Origin: Pseudotabrizicola algicola
Lineage (GTDB): Bacteria; Pseudomonadota; Alphaproteobacteria; Rhodobacterales; Rhodobacteraceae
Direction of reading: 5' to 3'
NCBI RefSeq assembly: GCF_010915705.1
Contig: NZ_JAAIKE010000003.1
Coordinates: 124,001 to 188,000 of the forward strand
DNA length: 64,000 nt
Position numbers and translations under genes: made by a program. Under the pieces are notes generated by a model that was not told where the DNA came from, searched no databases, and was given only the letters and a program-made list of their open reading frames with translations. How positions within the stretch are numbered: position 1 is the first letter of the stretch; each line of letters begins with the position of its first letter. Shown one piece after another: positions 11,116-47,186 of this stretch.

Positions 11116-12084
11116 TTATGTCGTAAGGTGGCAGGCGCTGAAGTGATCCGGTCCGATCTGCTTTAGCGGGGGCACCGAGGCGGCACATTCAGCCACCGCA
11201 CGGGGACAGCGTGTGCGGAACACGCAACCCGAGGGCGGATTGATCGGGCTCGGGATATCCCCCGTCAGGATCACGCGTTTGCGCTTGTGCCCCGGTTTGG
11301 GGATCGGCACCGCCGAAAGCAAGGCTTCGGTATACGGGTGGTTGGGGTTCGAATACAGCGTGGAAGAGGGCGCAATTTCCATCACCCGTCCCAGATACAT
11401 CACGATCACCCTGTCGCAGATATGTTCGACGACAGCTAGATCGTGCGCGATAAACAGCATCGTCAGATCAAGGCTGTCTTTCAGATCATCAAGAAGGTTG
11501 ATGACCTGCGCCTGAATAGACACGTCAAGCGCAGAGACCGGTTCGTCGGCCACCAGAAAATCAGGGTTCACCGCCAAGGCGCGGGCAATGCCGATGCGCT
11601 GGCGCTGGCCACCCGAAAACTCATGCGGAAAGCGATCCAAATAATCGGCAGACAGGCCGACCTGTTCCAGAAGCGCGATGCTGCGGTCTTCGTGCGTGTC
11701 AGGTGTGCCGATCTTGTGCAGGCGCAAGGCGTGGCCGATGGTCGTCCGGATCTTCTCGCGCGGGTTCAGACTGGCGTAGGGGTCCTGAAAGATGATCTGC
11801 ATCCGCTTGCGATAGCGCCGCATTTCGAGCTTTGACAATCCCATGATATCGGTGCCGTCAAAGCTGACGCCGCCCGAGGTTGCCTCCTCCAGCCGTAGCA
11901 GCAGGCGGCCTACCGTGGTCTTGCCCGACCCGCTTTCGCCGACCAGTCCCACAACCTCACCCTTGCGGATGCCAAAGCTGATCCCGCTCACCGCCTTGAC
12001 GTGGTTCACCACGCGGTTGAGCACGCCCCCGCGGATGGGGAAGTGCTTCACCAGACCCTCGACGCGGAGAAGTTCGGCGCTCAT
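11116..12084 (-). CDS. dppF: Peptide-type ABC importer ATPase (DppF/OppF family)
   Basis: Cytoplasmic ATPase subunit of a dipeptide/oligopeptide-type importer. Of 322 aa, Walker A (GESGSGKT) is at about 49-56, the signature FSGGQ at 156-160, Walker B at about 177-181 (FLVADEP), and the Opp/Dpp C-terminal Cys motif ([15 protein letters not shown]) follows. The start overlaps the end of dppD by 4 nt. It is the last gene of a minus-strand operon. The cognate permeases are probably DppB/DppC at 33.3-35.2 kb, because no other permease of this class lies in the locus. Confidence 0.93.
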
Positions 12085-13097
12085 GCGGGCATCCTTTCAG
12101 AGAAATCGAGTTCTTTCCAGCGCAGGCATCTGACTTCGCGGCCCGGCAGGGCGGGTTCCAGTATGGGCTGGGTGGTTGTGCAGCGCGGCTCGGCATAGGT
12201 GCAACGGGTAGAAAAGCGGCAGCCTTTGGGCAGGCGTGACAGTGCCGGAACCTGCCCCGGAATGGTCAGCAGACGTGACTTGTTCTTGGAACTGCCCAGT
12301 TTGGGGATCGAGCGCATCAACCCCGCCGTATAGGGCATGCGGGGCCGTTCGAAGATGTCTTCTACCGGTCCGGTTTCGACAACCTGGCTGGCATACATGA
12401 CGACGACACGGTTGGCCAACTCTGCCACCACGCCAAGGTCATGGGTGATAAACACCATCGCCATGCCAAGTTTCTGCTGCAATTCCTGCATCAGTTCGAG
12501 GATTTGCGCCTGAATGGTCACGTCAAGTGCTGTGGTAGGTTCGTCCGCGATCAGAAGGCTGGGCTGGCAGGCCAGCGCCATTGCGATCATCGCACGCTGG
12601 CGCATGCCGCCCGACATTTCGTGCGGGTAATTGTCGGCGCGGCGGCGCGGCTCGGGAATCCCCACCAGCGCCAGCAAGTCAATCGCACGTTCATGCGCCT
12701 GTTTGCGGTTCAGCCCTTCATGGCGGATCGGCACTTCGGCGATCTGATGCCCGATGGTGTGCACCGGGTTCAGGCTTGTCATCGGTTCCTGAAAAATCAT
12801 GCCAATGTCCTTGCCACGCACACCGCGCATTTCGGCTTCGGACAAGGTGGTGAGTTCGCGGCCGCGCAGCTTGATTGACCCGCGCGAGATGCGGCCAACC
12901 CCCGCGGGCAACAGCCGCATGATCGACAGGCTGGTAACCGATTTTCCCGAACCGCTTTCCCCGACGATGGCAAGCGTCTCGCCCGCGTTCACGGTAAAGC
13001 TGACCCCGTCAACGGCGACGACATCAATCTTGCGACCCAGCGAAAAGGTTGTCTGCAGGTCGGTCACTTCCAGAAGCGGTGCGGCCCTGTCTGTCAT
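12081..13097 (-). CDS. dppD: Peptide-type ABC importer ATPase (DppD/OppD family)
   Basis: 338 aa from ATG 13097, preceded by AGGAGA and overlapping the upstream stop by 4 nt (ATGA). A longer open frame to 13169 is rejected because the extra residues are not family-like. Walker A GESGSGKS is at 46-53, the signature MSGGM at 161-165 and Walker B LLIADEP at about 181-187. The C-terminal [15 protein letters not shown] motif is typical of OppD-type subunits. It pairs with DppF to energise uptake of a peptide-like solute and is embedded with amidohydrolases and peptidases that would process it. Confidence 0.93.
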
Positions 13098-14482
13098 CCT
13101 GCGGTCTCCTGATGGTGGGGGGTGATAAATCGGCCAAGGCCTTGGGCGCCCGTCAGGCTGCCATTCCAAACGGTCTGCCCGGCCAGCAGGGTGTGCACCA
13201 CAGCACCCCGAAAGCGGGCGCCGTGGCTAAGGCGTGCGACAGAGCGGGCAGCCGTCAGCAAACCGCCCTCTGTGACATGGGTTTCGTCCGCCATGTCCAC
13301 AAGAACGATATCGGCGTCAGCACCCGGCGCAAGCTTGCCTTTGCCTGGCAAGGCGAAGCGCTGCGCGGCGGCCCCCGAAACGAGCCGCATTGCCTGCCCA
13401 ATCGTCAATCTGCCCAAGGCTACGGCATCGAGCAGGGTGGGCAGCAGCACCTCGGTTCCCGGATGACCGGGCGGCGCGGTCAGGAAGTTGCCTTCGTGCG
13501 CGGCCTTTTCGGCGGCCGAGAAGGCGGCATGGTCGGTCGTGACATGGCCAATGGTGCCATCGCTCAGGGCGTCCCAGAGCGCCGCGCGATCGGCGGCCTG
13601 TCGGATCGGCGGGTTGATCTTGGCGCAGACGCCAGCACGGGCAACGTCATCGGCGGTATAGGTCAGATAATGCGGACAGGTTTCGGCGCTGAAATCGGAA
13701 CTGCCTGCAAAGCGGCGCAGAACCTCTACCGTATCCGCGCTGGTGACATGGGCGATGTGCAGCTTTGCCCCTGCGGTGATGTTCATGGTCAGCAGTTGTG
13801 CCACGGCAAGCGCCTCGGCCAGAGGGGGGCGGGCGGCGTTATGCGTTGCGGCATCTGCGGGATCAAGCAAGGCCGCGGCCGACTCCGCCTGCGCCAGCAG
13901 GCCTGCATGTTCGGCATGCACCACGACGGGCAGGCCGATCCGCGCAGCCAGTTGCAGCACGCGCAGCTGATCGGCGGCGTGGGGCCATGCAAGCCCGGCA
14001 AATTCATGCTCGCGGCCCACAGGCGCAGGGGTGGTGAATATCTTGAGCGCGACAATCCCCGATGCGGCCAAGGCATCAAAGGCGGCTTCGGTCAGTTCGA
14101 CCGGAGCGGCGTATAGGCCAAAGTCGATGTGTGCGCTCTGGGAAAAGTGGTCCCGACGCAGGGCCACGCGGTCTGGCGCATTACAGCACGGATCGGTGAT
14201 CGGCATTTCGAAAACGGTCGTGATGCCGCCCTTGGCGCAGGCTGCGGTCTCCGAGGCTACGGTGCCGCGTTGCGGATAGGCCGGCGCACGTATGTGGCAG
14301 TGAATGTCGATCGCGCCGGGCAGCACCATCAATCCGCTGGCATCGATCTGGCGGGCAGCTTCTGCCGTTTCGCCGGGGGAAAGGAGTGCAGCGATCTGGC
14401 CATGTTTGACCAGCACGCTCCCCGCCACCGGCCCGTCGGGCGACAGCACAGTGCCGCCCGAGATGATGACGCTGTCGGTCAT
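13094..14482 (-). CDS. Cyclic amidohydrolase (allantoinase/dihydroorotase/hydantoinase family)
   Basis: 462 aa from ATG 14482 (ATGA overlap with the upstream stop). Amidohydrolase-superfamily metal ligands are visible: D-I-H-C-H with His61 and His63, a candidate carbamylated Lys147 (VALKIF), HAEH, HIAHV, and the catalytic Asp in TTDHAAF. The family hydrolyses cyclic amides or ureides (dihydroorotate, hydantoins, allantoin). HCHIR replaces the HxHxRDPG of classical dihydroorotase, so a pyrimidine-biosynthetic role is unlikely. The operon position suggests ring opening of an imported or pathway-derived cyclic amide. Exact substrate unknown. Confidence 0.85.
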
Positions 14483-46107: not shown

Positions 46108-46127
46108 TGTCTCTCCTGTGGGCTGGG

Positions 46128-47186
46128 TCAGAGCAGCCGGTCAAGGCCGTGACGGGTGTAGAAATCGGACATCCGGATGATGCGGCCGGTCTCGCCGCTT
46201 TCGATCCCTGCAAAACACAGCGCGAGCGAACGCAAGTGGTCGCGCCCATCACAGGGGAGGGGGACTTCGCCGCGCAGCGATGCCAGAAATGCGCCCAGGA
46301 GCGCGATGCTGTCGTCGTAATAGGGGCGTGCGTCGGGCAGGGGGATGGCGGTCAGGTCGGGGTCGGCCCGGTGTGCATAGGCCAGATCCGAGTGCAATTC
46401 GCGCTGGATGATCACGCCCTCGGTGCAATCGATGCGCCACTCAAAGCCGGGGTTGTTCCAGCCGCCTGACCATGTTCCGAAGTAATTGACTTCCGCCCCG
46501 TCTTCCAGCGTCAGCAGGCAATGGACGTTGGCGTCATGAGCATACATGCTCCACGGCGGGTTCCATGTGTGGCAGGCGATGGCCGCAACCTCTCGTCCGT
46601 GACAAAAGCGGATCAGGTCCAGATGGTGTATGGTCTGCTCCAGCATCATCGGGTGGCGCATGGTAAGCGGATAGCGGTTTATGCCCGGTCTGCGCCCGTC
46701 TCGATTGCGCAGATACCGGAATTGGCCAAACCCCACTTTGCCGAGCCGTTCTCCCCTCAGCCAATCGCGCATCTCCATGCTGACAGGCAGATAGCGGAAG
46801 TTCAGCCCGACGCTGAGGGGCATGCCAGAGGCATCGGCGGCGTCGATGATGCCGACTGTATCGGCAAGGCTGGTGGACAGCGGCTTTTCGGCAAGGACGG
46901 GCAGGCCGGCATCAAACAGAAGCCTGCACTGCGCCAGATGCCCGTCTGGCGGCGTGACAAGAATGGCCGCGTCAAAGCGTTCAGCCGCAAGCGCGGGGTC
47001 AATCTCCGCGAACCAAGGCAGGCCAGGGTGCTCTGCCTCGAACATCTCGCGCGCAGCGGGGCTGGGGTCGACAACGGCGGCAATCTCCACACAGGGGCTT
47101 TCGGCCACCACCTGCGCCCACATACGCCCGCGCGTGCCGGCGCCGATCAACAGGAGGCGCGTGATCTCTTTGGAAACAGACGGCAA
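46128..47186 (-). CDS. Gfo/Idh/MocA oxidoreductase with TTG start (paralogue of 30579-31664)
   Basis: 352 aa. The start is TTG 47186, supported by GGAGAGG 5 nt upstream and by the Rossmann strand (LLLIGAGTRGRMWAQVV) beginning at residue 11; no in-frame ATG fits. The EKP motif lies in LAEKPLSTSL. VGLNFRYLPV, QTIHHLDLIRF, TWNPPWSMYAHDAN and DLAYAHRAD align closely with the 30.6-kb protein. The shared operator lies just upstream. Probably an NAD(P)-linked dehydrogenase acting on a related isomer. Confidence 0.9.
   Translation of the reverse strand: MPSVSKEITRLLLIGAGTRGRMWAQVVAESPCVEIAAVVDPSPAAREMFEAEHPGLPWFAEIDPALAAERFDAAILVTPPDGHLAQCRLLFDAGLPVLAEKPLSTSLADTVGIIDAADASGMPLSVGLNFRYLPVSMEMRDWLRGERLGKVGFGQFRYLRNRDGRRPGINRYPLTMRHPMMLEQTIHHLDLIRFCHGREVAAIACHTWNPPWSMYAHDANVHCLLTLEDGAEVNYFGTWSGGWNNPGFEWRIDCTEGVIIQRELHSDLAYAHRADPDLTAIPLPDARPYYDDSIALLGAFLASLRGEVPLPCDGRDHLRSLALCFAGIESGETGRIIRMSDFYTRHGLDRLL

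What the first reader, a model, noticed from the sequence alone, without database searches (positions are those of the whole stretch)
11116..47186. About 32-gene catabolic locus that matches no pathway I know
The locus combines a peptide-type importer with two binding proteins, five peptidase/deacylase-type enzymes (M32, M20, M14, AstE-like, M24-like), three ring or ureide hydrolase-type enzymes, AllA, two aminotransferases, RidA, an aldolase, three Gfo/Idh/MocA proteins, two SDRs, an Ldh-type dehydrogenase, two DUF4438 proteins, an unrecognised barrel-like protein and an ABC exporter. Tight overlaps and shared operators argue that they act together. The mix suggests breakdown of a compound containing amide-linked amino acids, a cyclic amide or ureide and a polyol or sugar-acid part (for example a peptidyl sugar or a modified cyclic peptide). 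That is inference.
Basis: partly seen in the sequence, partly recalled or inferred. Interest (0 to 1): 0.72.

Follow-up and report, generated by a model that had tools for sequence, protein, structure and literature searches.

The report
Widespread catabolic gene island, substrate unknown
A 36-kb block of 32 genes, whose core recurs with the same regulatory site in bacteria of several phyla, looks like an undescribed pathway for importing and dismantling a peptide-like, probably sugar-bearing compound whose identity is still unknown.

Summary
Relatives of the unrecognised protein, X473, lie in 80 loci titled as six phyla; X473 with one aminotransferase and one amidohydrolase recurs in 42 of 44 fully flanked loci, eleven genes together in 30 of 44. 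A palindrome, ATTGTCGACAAT, marks three intergenic sites here and, within one mismatch, the central divergent promoter in 41 of 52 loci. A tree test rejects one proteobacterial clade (p-AU 0.00024), so transfer between phyla is likely. X473 models as a glycoside-hydrolase-like barrel and has only a sub-threshold GHL10 sequence match. The PuuE-AllA-like pair is a diverged copy of a canonical pair elsewhere in this genome. The M24-fold protein has lost its metal site in 54 of 54 sequences. Of 30 proteins scanned, none reached a curated NCBIfam cut-off in the rows shown. Best reading: one importer-fed regulon for a sugar-bearing peptide-like compound with a lactam, imide or ureide ring. Substrate and reaction order are inferred; glycated peptides, O-glycopeptides, muropeptides, mixed modified peptides or an unknown natural product remain possible.

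The parts
11116..12084 (-). A1 DppF-type importer ATPase
   Evidence: Pfam ABC_tran + oligo_HPY
12081..13097 (-). A2 DppD-type importer ATPase
   Evidence: Pfam; start chosen, homology
13094..14482 (-). A3 AllB/hydantoinase-like amidohydrolase; metal motifs (recalled) kept in 52 aligned sequences
   Evidence: Pfam Amidohydro_1; NCBIfam allantoinase 262.6 bits, cut-off 357.85
14479..15900 (-). A4 X473, glycoside-hydrolase-like TIM barrel; N194-E195-R196 invariant in 76 aligned sequences
   Evidence: No Pfam match at E 0.001, no NCBIfam match; GHL10 16.2 bits, cut-off 27.9; model pLDDT 86.7; Foldseek
15897..17075 (-). A5 class I aminotransferase
   Evidence: Pfam
17072..18292 (-). A6 amidohydrolase near Xaa-Pro dipeptidases and Arg carboxypeptidase Cc2672; metal motifs (recalled) kept
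18305..19453 (-). A7 M24-fold protein; ligand positions: D to G 54/54, D to E 54/54, H 54/54, E 54/54, last E kept in 10/54
   Evidence: Pfam; positions placed by eye against an aminopeptidase P; counts
19450..20529 (-). A8 Ldh_2-type dehydrogenase
   Evidence: Pfam; NCBIfam rows below cut-off
20531..21415 (-). A9 DUF4438 paralogue with altered motifs
   Evidence: Pfam
21412..22281 (-). A10 DUF4438 with DHVEPG and GHGPG motifs; relative of TM1086
   Evidence: Pfam; PDB 3dcl, 3n99
22367..22378 (.). Operator-like site ATTGTCGACAAC in the divergent promoter
   Evidence: conserved elsewhere
22446..23966 (+). B1 M32 carboxypeptidase, HEAGH present
   Evidence: Pfam
23971..25158 (+). B2 class I aminotransferase
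   Evidence: Pfam
25170..25649 (+).
   Evidence: Pfam
25651..26640 (+). B4 AstE/DoeB-like deacylase
   Evidence: Pfam, NCBIfam 94.3 bits vs 402.7, PDB
26646..27566 (+). B5 PuuE-like protein, paralogue of the canonical PuuE on contig C12 (start inferred)
27563..28072 (+). B6 AllA-like protein, paralogue of the AllA on contig C12
   Evidence: Pfam Ureidogly_lyase 80 bits, cut-off 23; NCBIfam below cut-off
28069..28971 (+). B7 DHDPS-family protein
28949..29674 (+). B8 GntR-FCD regulator, presumed to bind the operator
   Evidence: Pfam; binding inferred
29671..30582 (+). B9 NAD-dependent epimerase (extended SDR)
   Evidence: Pfam
30558..31664 (+). B10 Gfo/Idh/MocA dehydrogenase 1
   Evidence: Pfam
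31661..33214 (+). B11 binding protein 1 (SBP_bac_5)
   Evidence: Pfam; best solved chains YliB, AgaA
33292..34266 (+). B12 DppB permease
   Evidence: Pfam
34277..35203 (+). B13 DppC permease
   Evidence: Pfam
35214..36290 (+). B14 Gfo/Idh/MocA dehydrogenase 2
   Evidence: Pfam
36283..36990 (+). B15 classical SDR
   Evidence: Pfam
36987..38348 (+). B16 M20 dipeptidase-type enzyme
   Evidence: Pfam, NCBIfam
38408..40249 (+). B17 ABC exporter half 1
   Evidence: Pfam
40246..42102 (+). B18 ABC exporter half 2
   Evidence: Pfam
42107..42523 (+). B19 RidA-like protein
   Evidence: Pfam
42659..42670 (.). Operator-like site ATTGTCGACACT before binding protein 2
42792..44354 (+). B20 binding protein 2 (SBP_bac_5)
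   Evidence: Pfam
44431..46107 (-). C1 M14 carboxypeptidase, no signal peptide seen by eye
   Evidence: Pfam
46128..47186 (-). C2 Gfo/Idh/MocA dehydrogenase 3
   Evidence: Pfam
47216..47227 (.). Operator-like site ATTGTCGACATT before C2-C1

Best explanation
The block is one GntR-controlled catabolic regulon that has moved between phyla. A Dpp-type ABC importer brings in a small sugar-bearing, peptide-like compound. In the cytoplasm X473 would cut or process the sugar link; M14, M20, M32, A6 and the deacylase B4 would open amide bonds; A3 and the PuuE-AllA-like pair (hydantoinase/oxoprolinase types in some relatives) would open a lactam, imide or ureide ring; freed amino groups would go to the aminotransferases A5 and B2; the sugar part would be oxidised and split by three Gfo/Idh/MocA enzymes, SDR, epimerase and DHDPS. 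Shown: gene content, synteny, shared site, folds, paralogy. Inferred: the regulator's role, order of steps, each enzyme's reaction, and the substrate class.
For: Unit: X473 with A5 and A6 in 42 of 44 fully flanked loci, eleven genes (A3-A10, B1-B3) in 30 of 44. In ten longer regions Ldh_2 and VOC in 10, both DUF4438 in 9, M14 and M20 in 8, at 45% identity or more. Operator; within one mismatch in 41 of 52 central intergenic regions against at most 1 in 20 sets of shuffled regions. Sugar: X473 model matches Cwp19, PgaB, beta-galactosidases, GH164, GH35, GH156; weak GHL10 match; one distant relative directly follows a Gfo/Idh/MocA gene (G617), another lies 7 kb from a 3-keto-disaccharide hydrolase and further Gfo genes, with efflux genes between (G584). 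Minimal core of Dpp permeases, X473, A6, A5, Gfo and Dpp ATPase in 4 of 9 Gemmatimonadota regions. Ring: A3 keeps amidohydrolase motifs; B5/B6 are separate from a canonical pair; hydantoinase B types in Devosia and Trueperaceae loci, A type in Devosia, both in a Chloroflexota region. Transfer: p-AU 0.00024.
Against: Nothing identifies the substrate. X473's structural matches have 10-14% identity, TM-scores of 0.4-0.5 on the query and 8-10 A rmsd, the GHL10 match is under its cut-off, and the carboxylate after strand 7 is not kept in distant relatives: glycosidase action is a fold-level guess. The ring module is the least constant part: no PuuE, AllA or AstE relative at 45% in the two Chloroflexota-type regions. 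X473 stands without A5/A6 in an Acidimicrobiia locus and without A5 in a Trueperaceae one (L084, L081). A hydroxyproline-type locus around one distant relative did not recur. A scavenger of mixed modified peptides would also fit.
Confidence: 0.5

Rival explanations
1. Glycated (Amadori or advanced glycation) or opine-like sugar-amino acid conjugates: the importer takes glycated peptides, peptidases trim them, Gfo/SDR enzymes act on the sugar part, hydantoinase-type enzymes open lactam or imidazolone rings.
For: Binding protein 1 has AgaA as second-best solved relative (that AgaA binds agropinic acid and that agropinic acid use involves HyuAB-like enzymes is recalled). Hydantoinase types in several versions. 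Three Gfo/Idh/MocA enzymes.
Against: No amadoriase, deglycase or fructosamine-kinase type family in the Pfam results; X473's fold is that of glycosidases.
Confidence: 0.2
2. O-glycosylated, proline- or hydroxyproline-rich peptides from plants and algae: X473 removes the sugar, Xaa-Pro-type enzymes cut the peptide.
For: A distant X473 relative (31%) in Granulicella lies in a stretch with GH127, a proline racemase family protein, FAD oxidoreductases, DHDPS and an aminopeptidase P domain protein; A6 resembles Xaa-Pro dipeptidases; an S9 peptidase in a Chloroflexota version.
Against: No proline racemase or such oxidoreductase family in the locus; in seven further Acidobacteriota regions with distant relatives no match to Granulicella's racemase or oxidoreductases, one GH127-like match at 26%; ring hydrolases unexplained.
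Confidence: 0.15
3. Muropeptide (peptidoglycan fragment) use.
For: Rhizobiales and Rhodobacterales lack AmpG; Agrobacterium imports muropeptides through the peptide ABC transporter YejBEF-YepA (PMC9790009, passages seen). X473's nearest folds include Cwp19 and its weak sequence hits are to a GHL10 protein that I take for DigH (name recalled). An MR_MLE-type gene lies in a Chloroflexota version.
Against: No AmpD, NagZ, LdcA or MurNAc-kinase type family among the 32 genes; no role there for AllA/PuuE/hydantoinase types.
Confidence: 0.1
4. A general clean-up of damaged or modified peptides (cyclised, racemised, glycated) rather than one compound.
For: Many hydrolase types; several paralogous binding proteins, importers and amidohydrolases in the larger versions.
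Against: The same genes and one site recur; X473 and A6 keep about 83% identity between the window and Gemmatimonadota, which suggests a narrow substrate.
Confidence: 0.15
5. Ordinary allantoin/ureide degradation with unrelated neighbours.
For: AllB-, PuuE-, AllA- and AllD-like proteins; B6 passes the Pfam ureidoglycolate lyase score.
Against: All four score under the NCBIfam cut-offs; a PuuE over its cut-off and a stronger AllA lie together elsewhere in this genome; synteny and operator tie the pair to the rest.
Confidence: 0.03

Closest known systems
Bacterial allantoin degradation (AllB/PuuE, AllA, AllD)
   Same: Homologues of a ring hydrolase, a ureidoglycolate lyase and an Ldh_2 dehydrogenase in one locus
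   Different: All under NCBIfam cut-offs; a canonical pair exists elsewhere in the genome; set among peptidases, an importer and sugar-type enzymes
Agropinic acid/mannityl opine catabolism of Agrobacterium (recalled)
   Same: SBP_bac_5-type importer; lactam opening by HyuAB-like enzymes; polyol or sugar plus amino acid
   Different: No X473, DUF4438 or such a set of peptidases there as far as I recall; the window version has no HyuAB
Ectoine utilisation (DoeA, DoeB)
   Same: An M24-fold and an AstE-fold enzyme in one cluster
   Different: Both far under the curated cut-offs (50.4 of 575 and 40.7 of 613; 94.3 of 402.7 bits)
GHL10 (DigH), PgaB and Cwp19 type glycoside-hydrolase-like barrels
   Same: Fold of X473; sub-threshold GHL10 match
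   Different: 10-14% identity in the structural matches; X473 lacks a visible signal peptide and forms a family without a model in Pfam or NCBIfam
Alphaproteobacterial muropeptide uptake by YejBEF-YepA
   Same: Peptide-type ABC importer feeding cytoplasmic hydrolases
   Different: AmpD, NagZ and sugar kinases are not in the locus

Membership tests
Allantoin degradation pathway | PuuE, AllA and AllB above NCBIfam curated cut-offs | tested here: not met
   356.5 vs 424.6; best AllA row 70.6 vs 160; 262.6 vs 357.85 bits; PuuE over cut-off on contig C12
Allantoin degradation pathway | Pfam ureidoglycolate lyase domain | tested here: met
   B6 80 bits, cut-off 23; 75.6 against 173.3 for the copy on C12
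Ectoine utilisation | DoeA and DoeB above curated cut-offs | tested here: not met
Agropinic acid/mannityl opine catabolism | HyuAB-type lactam opening next to the importer (recalled) | tested here: not met
   No hydantoinase A/B family among the 32 genes; present in some relatives
Agropinic acid/mannityl opine catabolism | Growth on the opine | not testable with these tools
   Needs culture
Peptidoglycan recycling | AmpD, NagZ, LdcA type genes in the locus | tested here: not met
   None in Pfam results
Glycoside hydrolase (TIM-barrel type) | TIM-barrel fold similar to glycoside hydrolases | tested here: met
   Model pLDDT 86.7, best Foldseek E 3.4e-10, TM on query about 0.5
Glycoside hydrolase (TIM-barrel type) | Sequence match to a named family | tested here: not met
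   Only GHL10 at E 0.006, 16.2 bits against 27.9
Glycoside hydrolase (TIM-barrel type) | Conserved carboxylate after strand 4 | tested here: met
   E195 in 76 of 76 and in all 8 rows of the remote alignment
Glycoside hydrolase (TIM-barrel type) | Second conserved carboxylate | tested here: inconclusive
   D415 in 76 of 76 close sequences, not kept in remote rows
Glycoside hydrolase (TIM-barrel type) | Measured glycosidase activity | not testable with these tools
   Needs purified protein
M24 metallopeptidase (A7) | Five metal ligands D, D, H, E, E (recalled) | tested here: not met
   G 54/54, E 54/54, H 54/54, E 54/54, then N 32, D 12, E 10 (positions placed by eye)
DUF4438 | PF14505 and PF20999 above gathering score | tested here: met
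   Both A9 and A10
Acetamidase/formamidase (considered for DUF4438) | Profile similarity | tested here: not met
   hhalign probability about 1%

The most novel reading that the evidence does not exclude
An undescribed catabolic pathway for a widespread environmental sugar-peptide conjugate, carried as a transferable gene island, whole or reduced, in at least five phyla, with a new glycoside-hydrolase family (X473), a two-part DUF4438 enzyme and a metal-free M24-fold hydrolase as its signature chemistry.
Probability: 0.45. Interest if true: 0.8.

Novelty: new variant of a known kind. Interest (0 to 1): 0.64.

Why it matters
Twenty-two of the 32 genes are found at 45% identity or more in at least 7 of 10 long regions from distant bacteria (leaving out B20, whose matches are paralogues), with a shared regulatory site. 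By their record titles the carriers come from lakes, seas, soda-lake sediments and leaves among others, which suggests a common and valuable compound. Solving it would give functions to DUF4438 (no paper in the searched library holds the name), to a glycoside-hydrolase-like family without a model, and to a metal-free M24-fold enzyme, and would make a piece of organic nitrogen turnover testable.

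Tried and rejected
DUF4438 as an acetamidase/formamidase: rejected, hhalign probability about 1% against 13 FmdA-type rows, some perhaps the same gene twice. DUF4438 elsewhere: 69 of 299 sampled genomes of the phylum have it, most in one family with a single copy. In four such regions it lies near a nitrilase-like gene, in three also beside an Aat-like gene (both confirmed by Pfam in one region); this did not explain it. Regulon members outside the locus: eight genomes scanned, twelve extra core sites looked at. 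None is clearly a pathway gene, but two lie by another GntR-like gene (L180, 33% to B8; L184, 29%), and L184 also has a Dpp-type binding protein and permease (25-34% to B11, B12): a related regulator system is possible and was not followed. Sites without the intact core were not looked at. Hydroxyproline glycopeptides because of Granulicella: the context did not recur in seven regions (its eighth region, L230, is the main cluster itself). Plasmid carriage: X473 only at 30-31% in two plasmid records, DUF4438 none. The first X473 model, from six sequences, was poor, pLDDT 44.4; one from 53 replaced it.

Faults found: the first clade test was wrong, since one long proteobacterial row and one mislabelled record stood among the outsiders; one search repeats it with 47 proteobacterial rows inside (the group was chosen after the tree was seen, which the test does not allow for). 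My ORF picking missed genes in some regions (PuuE and AllA in Devosia, seen), so absences in the maps are weak; one search uses tblastn. The genome scan depends on two short peptide patterns and misses relatives without them. Papers: searches listed no description of the cluster; I saw listings and starts of abstracts only, and passages of one paper, PMC9790009.

Full report
What is there. The locus holds 32 genes: ten leftward (A1-A10, 11116-22281), twenty rightward (B1-B20, 22446-44354) and two leftward (C1-C2, 44431-47186). Thirty of the 32 proteins (not the two importer ATPases) were scanned against NCBIfam; no row shown reached its curated cut-off (for some proteins only the best 25 families are shown).

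It is a conserved unit. X473 (A4) was found in 6 of 198 genomes of the window's family, its own included. Four of the other five were read over 40-75 kb and carry the cluster, re-ordered around the importer; the fifth is a 7-kb contig with A1-A7, the ends cut. In these four, RidA, B20 and C2 had no best match of their own, the exporter pair and M14 were in two, and DHDPS was missing in one. A pattern-based scan of a collection of 84,980 species genomes gave 82 relatives, 80 kept, at 64-99% identity, in records titled Alphaproteobacteria, Gemmatimonadota, Acidobacteria, Trueperaceae, Caldilineaceae and Acidimicrobiia (many are binned genomes). Of 44 loci with full flanks, X473, A5 and A6 occur together in 42 (not L081, L084), and A3-A10 with B1-B3 in 30. 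In ten longer regions that I chose, counting best tblastn matches at 45% identity and 60% length: X473, Ldh_2, VOC and B11 in 10; A5, A6, AT2 and both DUF4438 in 9; M20, M14, M24, PuuE, B10 and the two permeases in 8; AllA, AstE, M32, AllB, GntR and DppD in 7; DppF, B14 and SDR in 6; DHDPS in 5; exporter halves and RidA in 3; the epimerase in 2. The rows for B20 (10) and C2 (4) include matches to paralogues. Of 18 genomes taken from the 80 loci, 16 have DUF4438, 15 of them two copies. In the two Chloroflexota-type genomes most of these genes lie within 60-70 kb with extra importers and peptidases.

Minimal core. Nine regions from a search of the phylum of G497 (titled Gemmatimonadales) were mapped. 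In four (G552, G592, G605, G574) X473 stands in a short run with DppB, DppC, A6, A5, a Gfo/Idh/MocA gene and at least one Dpp ATPase; G565 and G568 are variants, G642 is a 19-kb contig of the large type on which no DUF4438 was seen, and G617 and G584 hold only distant relatives. X473 matched in 15 of 150 genomes of that phylum, distant relatives and fragments included. I read importer, X473, amidohydrolase, aminotransferase and dehydrogenase as the heart, with ring-opening enzymes added and exchanged.

Regulation. TTGTCGACA lies at three places in the window: the A10/B1 divergent promoter, before B20 and before C2. Of 52 central intergenic regions, 13 hold ATTGTCGACAAT exactly, 41 within one mismatch and 49 hold GTCGACAA; twenty sets of shuffled regions gave at most 0, 1 and 2. 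Eleven have no site within one mismatch, among them both Aureimonas and the three Rhizobiaceae loci. In the own genome ten sites lie within one mismatch (1 for the reversed control pattern); four keep the core, three of them here and one inside an Omp85-type gene. That B8 binds the site is inference.

Transfer. On a quick tree of X473+A5+A6 (64 rows) the window's relatives group with Gemmatimonadota and Acidobacteriota, away from another Rhodobacteraceae group and from most Rhizobiales. Holding the 47 proteobacterial rows together costs 103 log units, p-AU 0.00024 (a record titled Enemella was counted as proteobacterial because its genome is held in the window's family). Mean identity of X473 to the window is 84% in 12 Gemmatimonadota loci and 73% in 14 chosen roseobacter-type loci, though A5 shows no such difference.

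X473. No Pfam match at E 0.001, no NCBIfam match and no solved relative by sequence; GHL10 at E 0.006, under its cut-off, and weak hits to GHL10-type proteins in three genomes. A model from 53 sequences (pLDDT 86.7) matches Cwp19, PgaB, beta-galactosidases, GH164, GH35 and GH156 at 10-14% identity and moderate TM-scores. N194-E195-R196 after strand 4 and D415 after strand 7 are invariant in 76 sequences; E-R is kept in all eight rows of a remote alignment, D415 is not. Remote relatives, about 30-37% identical where measured, several with a twin-arginine-like start, occur in Acidobacteriota, Bacteroidota and Gemmatimonadota, in varied carbohydrate-type or unclear surroundings. Glycosidase function is plausible by fold and company, not shown.

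Ring and amide enzymes. The genome has a PuuE over its cut-off (503.5 bits, 424.6) and an AllA (173.3 bits) together on contig C12, so B5 (356.4) and B6 (75.6) are diverged paralogues. Hydantoinase B types lie in Devosia-type and Trueperaceae loci, an A type in Devosia, both in a Chloroflexota region; I read this as a lactam, imide or ureide ring in the substrate. A7 has lost most of the M24 metal site, as creatinase has (recalled). A10 keeps DHVEPG and GHGPG, A9 has DCxHP and GYGPG; a two-part enzyme with one altered partner is inferred. TM1086 is the only solved relative at E below 1e-3.

Mechanism. Import by the Dpp-type transporter; sugar link by X473; amide bonds by M14, M20, M32, A6 and B4; ring by A3 and B5-B6; amino groups by A5 and B2; sugar part by Gfo/SDR/epimerase/DHDPS. 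All steps are inferred from family chemistry.

Noticed in passing
   Followed up: partly
L218-L221 (G206, G241, G202, G304): A single DUF4438 gene is common in one sampled family of the phylum; in these four regions it lies near a nitrilase-like gene, in three also beside an Aat-like gene.
   Followed up: partly
L145 (G504 Acidimicrobiia), about 6000-12400: A second X473, 35-37% identical, with its own A3-, A6- and A5-like genes: a paralogous pathway.
   Followed up: no
L137-L139 (G495 Rhizobiales): About 50 kb with several A6-like amidohydrolases and binding proteins around the cluster; no DUF4438 in the genome and no M24 match in the region.
   Followed up: no
L184 (G107:C13, about 212047): An operator-like site beside another GntR-like gene and a Dpp-type binding protein and permease: perhaps a related regulon.
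   Followed up: no
window 47459-51387: Just outside the block: FAD aromatic hydroxylase, iron-type alcohol dehydrogenase (maleylacetate-reductase-like by recall) and LysR gene, without the operator core.
   Followed up: no
window 7975-9633: Upstream gene with a CAP domain and RTX calcium-binding repeats; no match in the other long regions.
   Followed up: no
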